Part shown: in pieces, positions 28,742 through 40,811 of the stretch
Numbering within the stretch: the stretch's first letter is position 1
Layout: each line of letters begins with the position of its first letter
From: a virus
IMG/VR virus record: IMGVR_UViG_3300031933_000107
Coordinates: 1-61,432 of that record
DNA length: 61,432 nucleotides
Direction: 5' to 3' (one strand)
Notes under the pieces: generated by a model
Databases searched by the model: none
Seen by the model: the letters and a program-made list of their open reading frames with translations, nothing else
What the model was told of the DNA's origin: nothing
Program-made: the position numbers and the translations under genes

Positions 28742-29040
28742 ATCGCTTCACCCATGCAGCTCTCGTTCGGCCAATAGCCTTTATCCGCGTGCCACTGCTT
28801 GTACTTCTCCAGCAGGGTTTCGGCATCCACTTCGCGCACGAACCGCTCGACATACTGGATCGTCCAGCGTTCCGAGTCGCCATCCGGCGGACAGGGGCTG
28901 CGCTCATGGACGAACATCTGGAACGGCGGCAGTGCGGCCAGTGCCCGCCAGTCAATCACCGGTACCGGCTCATTCATGGTCACTGGATTGGCTTCAATGC
29001 CCTGGGCAGAAACTTTGATCGGTGGAGGCTTCTGGCTCAT
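28738..29040 (-). CDS. Small hypothetical protein of the tail cluster
   Basis: The protein has 100 residues, with a Pro-rich N-terminus ([20 protein letters not shown]) and a helical C-terminus ([13 protein letters not shown]). It resembles the small accessory proteins encoded beside phage tail genes. The start overlaps the HNH gene stop and the end overlaps the propeller gene, so it is translationally coupled on both sides. Confidence 0.7.
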
Positions 29041-29711
29041 TCATTCAGCTCCTTAATGCGTTTCTCGACTTTGCGCCTCTCGGCTGGCGTCAGCGAATCC
29101 AGCAGGTCAATCACTTTGTCCACCATCCTGATACCATGCGGGTCTTTCCTGCTTGTCCCGACACCGGTCCAAAGCTCAAGGTTCTCGGGCCGGTTGTCGT
29201 CACGCTTGCCGTTTTTATGGTGGACGCGCTCTGACTTTTTGAGTGGGCGGCCAAGCACTTGCTCCATGACAAGGCGGTGCTCCATGACTTTCTTGCCGTC
29301 ACGCCTTACCATGATGTATCCACCTGTTGATCGGATCTTGTCTGCAACAACTCTGGCATCAAGCGTGATCTCGGGCTTCTTCATCCCCATCCTTCTTGCC
29401 TTACCAGAGCACTTTACAGAGCAATAGGCCCGGGTCTTTCCATGCGGCCTTTCAAACGTGCTGCCACAAACGGCACATACACACGTCTTGTCTTTTGATG
29501 TTCCTTTGGCCTTGCATTGAACGCTGCAGTATTTCTGCTGCGCATACTTTGCCTTGAACTCTATGCCGCAGCATTCGCAGCTCTTCAGGTTTTTTCTTGT
29601 TGTTGCGTACCAGCATTCTTTGCAGCAATAGGATTGCTCAGCTCTCTTGGGCCGAAATACCTTACCGCAATGACTGCACTCTCTATCAGGCAATGAGCGT
29701 AATGCCGCCAT
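29037..29711 (-). CDS. HNH homing endonuclease with three zinc-finger modules
   Basis: The protein has 224 residues. Three tandem Cys modules ([39 protein letters not shown]) occupy residues 12-105 and probably bind DNA. The HNH nuclease core follows at about 140-182 ([32 protein letters not shown]). It begins 78 bp after the end of the intron-split tail gene and has its own sigma-70-like promoter and an AGGGGG ribosome site. It is therefore free-standing but adjacent to the group I intron, and probably mobilises the intron, or itself, by cutting intron-less phage DNA. Confidence 0.92.
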
Positions 29712-29745: not shown

Positions 29746-29774
29746 ATTATATCATTCAGCGGCACTACTGTCCC
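29746..29774 (-). promoter_or_regulatory. Promoter of the HNH gene
   Basis: Read leftward: GGGACA, 17 bp, TATAAT. The perfect -10 box lies 35 bp ahead of the HNH start codon. This would let the endonuclease be expressed independently of late transcription. Confidence 0.6.
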
Positions 29775-29788
29775 ATGTTAATACACCC

Positions 29789-30489
29789 TCACACCTTGAA
29801 TATTTTATTTGTGCCGTTGTCCCAGGTCACTATGCCGAACGTTCGGAATGGCTCGCTACTTCCATTCCCGCCAATTCCATTTGGCAGCTACATATCGCTA
29901 TGTAGAGCAGACTATCTCTTCAGCCAAGTGCGGCTGCTGTCGCGCGCTTCGGGCCGCTTGGCCCTACTCCCTTTCGGGATAGTCGTTACACCCCGCCCTT
30001 TCGGGCCTGGCACGGTATTGTCTCTGTCGAGATGTTCACCGTTTTCACGCGATCCACCCCCAGCCTCAAAGGCCGCAACGGTCTGGGGGGCACCTTTGTT
30101 TAGTGGTCTTTCTGACCACACGGGGTAATGTCCCCGCCGTTCGGCGTGATAGGAAGGCCGGTAGCCGTGTCGATATAGGCGATCAGCGGGCTGGTACTCT
30201 CGGTACCGGTGTCGGAGTAGATCACGATGGACTCGATACTCGCCCCACTCACGCTGGTGAATGTGCAATCGGCCGCATCGGCAGCGCCGCCGGTAGTTGC
30301 CTTGTTGGTCAGCGTTACCGGGCCTGCAATGCGAGCAGAGGTCGGAATGTCAGATAGGTACTGGTGAACGGCGGTCTGAGGCGTGTAGGCACCGGTATCC
30401 ACCAGAATGCACTTGATGGTATCGGTCATCCAGTTGATCTGCGCCTCAAGGAAGCGCTGGCGTGCAAAGTCGAAAAGGGTATTAGCCAT
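29789..30489 (-). CDS. Tail structural protein gene split by a group I intron (exons 30127-30489 and 29789-29827)
   Basis: Without splicing the frame runs 129 residues and stops inside the intron. Removing 29828-30126 joins ..NGGDI to TWDNGTNKIFKV, giving a 133-residue product whose end (WDNGxxKIF) is typical of this small phage tail-protein family. The start at 30489 has AGGAG 8 bp upstream. Exon 1 ends in U and the intron ends in G, as group I splicing requires. The protein (SDIPTSARIAGPVTLTNKAT, IESIVIYSDTGTESTSPLIA) is a probable tail component. Confidence 0.85.
29828..30126 (-). ncRNA. Group I self-splicing intron, 299 nt, without internal ORF
   Basis: In the transcribed direction it shows the conserved R-like element (GUGUAACGACUAUC) and S-like element (AAGAGAUAGUC). 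These pair as P7: GACUAUC with GAUAGUC. A GAAA tetraloop caps GCCC/GGGC, as in P5/P6. Helices matching P9 to P9.2 follow (CUACAUA..UAUGUAG; GCCAA..UUGGC; GGAAUGG..CCAUUCC). P1 can form between the exon end GGGGACAUU and GGUGCCCCC in the intron, placing a U.G wobble at the 5' splice site. The intron ends in G. The exact splice sites are inferred from the frame and P1. Confidence 0.9.
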
Positions 30490-40350: not shown

Positions 40351-40811
40351 AGCCCTACCTCGCACAACTCCCGCTCGGTTGCCCGGCGCTTGACCAGTCC
40401 AGGCAGTACCTGTCCACCGGCATACACCCAGCGGTCCAGCTCTTTACAGGCACCGACAGTATCACCGGCATTCAGTTTGCGCAGTAGAGTCGAGTTCTTG
40501 AACGCCCCTTCCCCGACATTGAATACAAACGATGCCAGCGCGGCTCGGCGCTCTATCGGCAGTTCAACCTTGGTGTGCCGGTCCACTGCCGCGAATGCCG
40601 TCCCGAGATCCTGCTCCAGTAGAGCATCACACTCCGCATCGGTCAGTGTCTGGCCCATCTTAGCGGTACCGGTATGGCCATAGCAGATGGTCGGAATTCC
40701 CACGGCATCCAGGTAGGCGCTATTCCGCTTACCCTCGTACCAGCTAACAAGAGGCGCGGCCACGGCAAGTGCAGCGCCCAAGGATGCAACAGCCAAACGC
40801 TTCTTAATCAC
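40347..40811 (-). CDS. SAR-type lysozyme endolysin (glycoside hydrolase family 24)
   Basis: The protein has 154 residues from a GTG start. The N-terminal hydrophobic, Ala/Gly-rich segment (LAVASLGAALAVAAPLV) matches a signal-arrest-release sequence. The catalytic pattern E-x8-D-x5-T is seen as E26, D35 and T41. It cleaves peptidoglycan after release from the inner membrane, as R21 of phage 21 does, so the partner holin is probably a pinholin-like protein. Confidence 0.92.
   Translation of the reverse strand: MIKKRLAVASLGAALAVAAPLVSWYEGKRNSAYLDAVGIPTICYGHTGTAKMGQTLTDAECDALLEQDLGTAFAAVDRHTKVELPIERRAALASFVFNVGEGAFKNSTLLRKLNAGDTVGACKELDRWVYAGGQVLPGLVKRRATERELCEVGL

What the first reader, a model, noticed from the sequence alone, without database searches (positions are those of the whole stretch)
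29789..30489. Group I intron splits a phage tail-protein gene
The tail gene stops early unless 29828-30126 is removed; removal restores the usual C-terminus (WDNGTNKIFKV). The removed stretch has group I hallmarks: R- and S-like elements pairing as P7 (GACUAUC/GAUAGUC), a P1 with a U.G at the 5' splice site, GAAA-capped helices and a terminal G. Introns in phages usually sit in replication or lysis genes; one in a small tail gene is uncommon. In late mRNA it could also act as a timing or virion-stoichiometry control.
Basis: partly seen in the sequence, partly recalled or inferred. Interest (0 to 1): 0.85.

Follow-up and report, generated by a model that had tools for sequence, protein, structure and literature searches.

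The report
Group I intron in phage tail gene
A virus of bacteria carries a self-splicing RNA inside a tail-tip gene, next to a DNA-cutting gene that probably helps it spread, and some related viruses carry an additional tiny intron with no catalytic part of its own that seems to borrow its neighbour's.

Summary
Removing 29828-30126 leaves a protein two residues short (GGDITWDNG). Intronless relatives read GGDIIVTWDNG. The correct intron is 29835-30127 (293 nt, minus strand): 5' exon GGGGACAU|, 3' end G (29835), spliced ORF 408 nt / 135 aa, exactly the relatives' length. Rfam Intron_gpI hits it (E 4.5e-9). P7, P7.1, P7.2 and P9 covary with T4 td (IA2-like). The host gene is homologous to the Bxb1 'tail wing arm' gp31. 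In relatives such HNH genes also sit beside intronless tail genes, whose last 20 codons are then often AT-shifted. Intron, exon 2 and spacer are 100% identical to a phage whose flanks differ, a homing footprint. Best reading: an ORF-less intron spread by a free-standing HNH ('collaborative homing').

Most surprising: in six relatives (not the window) a 49-67-nt insert with group I splice signals (P1, P2, P10, terminal G) but no core always sits 25 nt upstream of a full intron that lacks P2. It looks like a coreless mini-intron excised by its neighbour. No splicing was observed here.

The parts
30128..30489 (-). Exon 1 of the tail gene (phrog_644; homologue of Bxb1 gp31 'tail wing arm'); ends GGGGACAU|
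29835..30127 (-). ORF-less group I intron, 293 nt, IA2-like (td-like P7.1/P7.2)
   Evidence: RF00028 E 4.5e-9; blastn to phage group I introns, best E about 2e-16; covariation with td; exact ORF restoration
29789..29834 (-). Exon 2, encodes (I)IVTWDNGTNKIFKV and stop
30128..30135 (-). 5' exon strand of P1, GGGGACAU
   Evidence: Read from sequence
30086..30093 (-). Proposed internal guide sequence GUGCCCCC: U.G at splice site, A-U, C-G, A.C mismatch, then G-C pairs
   Evidence: Read from sequence; inference
29978..29984 (-). P7 5' strand GACUAUC (guanosine-binding helix)
29910..29916 (-). P7 3' strand GAUAGUC
29888..29905 (-). P9 hairpin CUACAUA-GCGA-UAUGUAG
29835..29835 (-). Last intron base (omega-G)
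29037..29711 (-). Free-standing HNH_3 endonuclease gene, 224 aa, candidate homing partner
   Evidence: PF13392 E 2.1e-10; phrog_20891, phrog_1271; same position next to intronless tail genes
29746..29774 (-). Promoter-like site (GGGACA, 17 nt, TATAAT with TG before it) ahead of the HNH gene
   Evidence: consensus match only, chance expectation about 1 per region

Best explanation
An ORF-less, td-like (IA2) group I intron of 293 nt interrupts the 3' end of a tail-tip gene. By the standard group I mechanism, guanosine bound at P7 attacks after GGGGACAU, and the exons are joined after the G of 29835, giving a normal 135-aa protein. The intron probably spread, and is maintained, through the free-standing HNH endonuclease encoded just downstream: the HNH cuts the 3' end of intronless tail genes, and repair from the donor copies intron, exon 2, spacer and HNH gene together (collaborative homing). 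Shown by sequence: intron identity, exact empty site, HNH position, AT-shifted 3' ends next to HNH genes, and a 100%-identity tract shared with a phage whose flanks differ. Inferred: splicing itself, the HNH cleavage site, and joint mobility.
For: RF00028 hit. Intron core matches introns of other phages. Core helices covary with T4 td, 0/500 shuffles. Corrected splicing restores the 135-aa homologue length exactly. HNH_3 domain. HNH at the same place beside uninterrupted tail genes. HNH found with 5 of 8 interrupted and 11 of 140 uninterrupted genes, Fisher p = 3.6e-4. Last 20 codons of HNH+ intronless genes are AT-shifted (median dGC3 -0.175 against +0.07, p = 1e-5), as co-conversion or recoding of the target region predicts. 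Against L005/L023: intron, exon 2 and spacer (416 nt) 100% identical, exon 1 96.7%, HNH 97.0%, next gene 88.9%, and the upstream adaptor gene does not align over much of its length.
Against: No RNA data. The RF00028 score is below the gathering cut-off. P1 has one mismatch and P10 is weak in the window. HNH specificity is untested. Association p-values are not corrected for shared ancestry, and 5 of 11 HNH+ intact genes show little AT shift. Some intron-bearing relatives (L095, L092, L170, L342) lack an adjacent HNH.
Confidence: 0.8

Rival explanations
1. The intron and the HNH gene are neighbours by coincidence: a functional group I intron, and an HNH gene that homes on its own into the tail/next-gene intergenic space.
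For: Several introns in relatives have no adjacent HNH (L095, L092, L170, L342). The HNH occurs without introns in 11 loci.
Against: The enrichment and the AT-shifted 3' ends place the HNH target where the introns sit, and the shared identical tract spans intron, exon 2 and spacer.
Confidence: 0.15
2. The gene is a decayed tail gene and the insert no longer splices; the truncated 129-aa product is what is made.
For: No expression data; sub-threshold RF00028 score.
Against: Splicing restores the exact homologue length and C-terminus; the core pairs fully; two different phages carry an identical 293-nt copy.
Confidence: 0.04
3. The intron is kept mainly as a regulator of tail-protein dose or timing.
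For: Unspliced RNA would give a protein lacking the last strand; GTP-sensing has been proposed for phage introns in general (PMC11878797).
Against: 140 of 148 relatives do without it; a patchy, multi-site distribution looks like a mobile element.
Confidence: 0.05

Closest known systems
T4 td intron (group IA2)
   Same: P7 followed by P7.1 and P7.2, P8, P9; near-identical P7/P7.1 sequence (AACGACUAUCCC...GGGAGUAGGG.CAAG)
   Different: td carries I-TevI inside the intron; the window intron has no ORF and lies in a tail gene
Staphylococcus phage Twort orf142 introns
   Same: Group IA2 introns in a tail gene, several per gene, a short exon (23 nt) between two of them (PMC10136302, PMC11878797)
   Different: In Twort both flanking introns are described as group I introns; in the A+B relatives here the upstream insert has no core. 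The genes are annotated differently (tail tube against tail wing arm); homology between them was not tested
Collaborative homing (cyanophage psbA / F-CphI)
   Same: ORF-less group I intron and separate endonuclease gene converging on one target region (PMC3984707)
   Different: Here an HNH_3 nuclease and a tail gene; cleavage not tested
Trans excision-splicing ribozymes and spliceozymes (laboratory)
   Same: A group I core removes a segment that carries only splice-site recognition elements; spliceozyme introns are 64-100 nt (PMC6155759, PMC4094466)
   Different: Engineered and in trans; the candidate here is natural, in cis, and only in relatives of the window

Membership tests
Group I intron | Conserved core including P7 | tested here: met
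   RF00028 E 4.5e-9 (below gathering 50); P7 100% paired, 15 of 24 core pairs changed on both sides
Group I intron | U at 5' splice site in P1 U.G and G as last intron base | tested here: met
   Corrected boundaries; U and G ends hold in all 15 inserts examined
Group I intron | Removal restores the host gene of intronless relatives | tested here: met
   135 aa
Group I intron | GTP-dependent self-splicing | not testable with these tools
   Needs an in vitro transcript
Subgroup IA2 | P7.1 and P7.2 between P7 and P3 | tested here: met
   Both helices 100% paired in the alignment with td
Homing endonuclease, HNH | HNH domain | tested here: met
   PF13392 E 2.1e-10
Homing endonuclease, HNH | Cuts the allele that lacks the element | not testable with these tools
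   Indirect only: AT-shifted 3' ends
Collaborative homing pair | Free-standing nuclease targets the intron insertion site | tested here: inconclusive
   Position, association, recoding and identity tract fit; target site unknown
Autonomous group I intron (for insert A of relatives) | Own catalytic core | tested here: not met
   49-67 nt; P1, P2, P10 and terminal G only
Translational bypass element, T4 gene 60 type (for insert A) | Matched take-off and landing codons | tested here: not met
   Take-off codon would be TTA, landing TGA in all sequenced variants (read; the rule itself is from general knowledge)

The most novel reading that the evidence does not exclude
In relatives of this phage one group I ribozyme core removes two introns. 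Insert A (49-67 nt: P1 GGCUU/GAGCC with U.G, GNRA-capped P2, P10, terminal G) has no core and lies 25 nt upstream of intron B, which has the core but lacks P2. A would be a natural coreless group I mini-intron, excised by its neighbour like a laboratory spliceozyme substrate, with a 25-nt microexon between. The window carries only a B-type intron.
Probability: 0.5. Interest if true: 0.88.

Novelty: new member of a known kind. Interest (0 to 1): 0.65.

Why it matters
The tail gene is a hotspot where states of intron invasion can be seen side by side: empty, nuclease only, intron plus nuclease, intron arrays. That makes the origin of mobile introns testable in a virion gene, whereas most known phage introns sit in DNA-metabolism genes (PMC11878797). 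If the coreless inserts splice, they would be a natural case of one ribozyme serving a second, non-autonomous intron, a step often imagined on the way from self-splicing introns to trans-acting splicing machinery, and made only in the laboratory as far as the papers searched here show.

Tried and rejected
Alternative cut GACAUU|A...C|AUAGUG also restores the protein but ends the intron in C: rejected. The pattern scan was mis-specified by one base and gave only chance hits. The genome scan with the exon-1 profile (32 loci) gave no interrupted gene. L143/L310: insert A present, but the contig then jumps into an inverted capsid gene; taken as chimeric and excluded. Pattern hits L343 and L344 do not resemble insert A and were not pursued. 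Pfam gives no family for the tail protein. Translational bypass for insert A: rejected for lack of matched codons. Literature searches for coreless or core-sharing group I introns found none, but the library lacks most subscription papers (Landthaler and Shub 1999 not held). The CsrA-like gene found upstream of the tail gene in F116 and 8P was not found in the window.

Full report
What is there. On the minus strand the tail gene starts at 30489 and, read straight through, stops at 30100 after 129 codons. Infernal finds Intron_gpI at 29888-30164(-), 42.1 bits, E 4.5e-9, under the gathering score of 50, which is why the whole-window gathering scan is empty. blastn of the insert matches 437 phage records, many of the best in or beside polymerase genes.

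Correct boundaries. Intronless relatives (phage 8P and F116, 86-87% identical protein) have a 408-nt gene ending GGDIIVTWDNGTNKIFKV. The cut after GGGGACAU (30128) and after ...CGUUCGG (29835) gives GAC ATC ATA GTG ACC TGG, 408 nt, 135 aa. It also meets the group I rules of U before the 5' splice site and G at the 3' end. The guide sequence is proposed at 30093-30086 (GUGCCCCC).

Class. The 3' half aligns with T4 td: P7, P7.1, P7.2 and P9 are 100% paired in the window, td and six related introns. Over the structure, 15 of 24 pairs have changes on both sides and the covariation score is 0.701 against 0.174 in shuffles, 0/500. This supports an IA2-type intron.

Host gene. phrog_644. A profile of 30 homologues hits PDB 9d93_Ra, 'Tail wing arm, gp31', E 2.3e-23. 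The AlphaFold model (pLDDT 90.7) matches it with TM 0.92 on the target, entry 'Mycobacteriophage Bxb1 tail tip'. The insert cuts off the last part of the protein, from residue 121 on.

Nuclease. An HNH_3 gene lies at 29711-29037, starting 77 nt after the tail stop codon. Relatives with a nuclease of this family at the same place but an intact tail gene are L007, L008, L009, L018, L020, L024, L161, L164, L169, L182 and L209. HNH is adjacent in 5 of 8 interrupted loci and 11 of 140 others (p = 3.6e-4, not corrected for ancestry). In HNH+ intact genes the last 20 codons fall in GC3 (median -0.175; L007, L020 and L209 about -0.45 to -0.47), in HNH- genes they rise by 0.07 (p = 1e-5), though 5 of the 11 show little or no shift. 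Against the only other phage found with the same intron (L005/L023) the intron, exon 2 and spacer are 100% identical over 416 nt, exon 1 96.7%, HNH 97.0%, the next gene 88.9%, with part of the upstream sequence unalignable. These are the marks expected of endonuclease-driven co-conversion centred on the 3' end of the tail gene.

Hotspot. Introns occur at five places in the last 75 nt of coding sequence: A (GL|P), B1 (GGD|I), B2 (window, two bases later), D (WD|NG; L092, L170) and C (WDNG|T; L095). In all 15 inserts checked the 5' exon ends in U, the insert ends in G, and removal gives a 135-aa protein. L095 has three in a row (A, B1, C).

The coreless insert. L006, L095, L142, L159, L178 and L342 have insert A of 67, 51, 51, 49, 49 and 51 nt, then a 25-nt microexon (ACCNATYACNCCNAAYGGNGGNGAT), then B1 of 291-339 nt. 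L342 lies in a bacterial genome held as a relative of the Acinetobacter towneri genome of L213, so it does not rest on metagenome assembly alone. A has P1 GGCUU/GAGCC with U.G, a P2 hairpin with GCGA or GUAA loop, and P10, which covaries with the wobble base of the proline codon (CCA with UUGG, CCG with UCGG). A further helix pairs A with the microexon (8-10 bp; L006 UCGGA/UCCGA, others UUUGG/CCAAA). P1 plus P10 as good as observed arises in 1-8 of 3000 shuffles of each insert, before the terminal G is counted.

A and B1 as one unit. In intact contigs A was never found without B1, nor B1 without A (152 loci). They are nevertheless shuffled: L095 and L142 share A at 98% but B1 at 65%; L006 and L142 share B1 at 78% but A at 42%. 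B1 has only 5-6 nt between guide sequence and P3, while the C and D introns have about 24-26 nt with a P2 hairpin there (read). Rfam's model, given the whole region, takes P1-P2 from A and the core from B1 in all six. In L142 it scores 95.0 bits that way and 83.3 without A. P10 of B1 also covaries with synonymous positions (UAUUG/CAAUA, UAUCG/CGAUA, UAUAG/CUAUA; read).

Mechanism proposed for A. The downstream core docks P1A, cuts at GGCUU|, and joins at the terminal G of A using P10, as trans excision-splicing and spliceozyme ribozymes do in the laboratory. P1B is processed by the same core before or after. Skipping of the microexon, as in Twort orf142, is possible but would shift the frame. 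All of this is inference from sequence.

Verdict. In the window: a real, td-like group I intron in a tail gene with a nearby HNH gene, a new member of a known kind. In relatives: a probable new variant that deserves direct test.

Noticed in passing
L095:5219-5656: A second, diverged copy of the tail gene (38% identity, ends IDVTWDNSARKIFEM) follows the triple-intron copy in L095.
   Followed up: no
L001:3796-4008, L002:3814-4020, L095:3808-4020: A CsrA-like gene overlaps the start of the tail gene in F116-like phages; it is absent upstream of the tail gene in the window, with only a non-significant hit at 40545-40661.
   Followed up: partly
L142, L159, L178, L008, L024: The HNH genes beside the tail gene have different N-terminal parts on a related HNH C-terminus, suggesting changing DNA specificity.
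   Followed up: no
L143:1790-1900: Contig with insert A joins into an inverted capsid gene right after the microexon; probably a chimeric assembly.
   Followed up: partly
L092:2320-2404: Match to sRNA-Xcc1 (RF02221, 69.8 bits) upstream of the tail gene.
   Followed up: no
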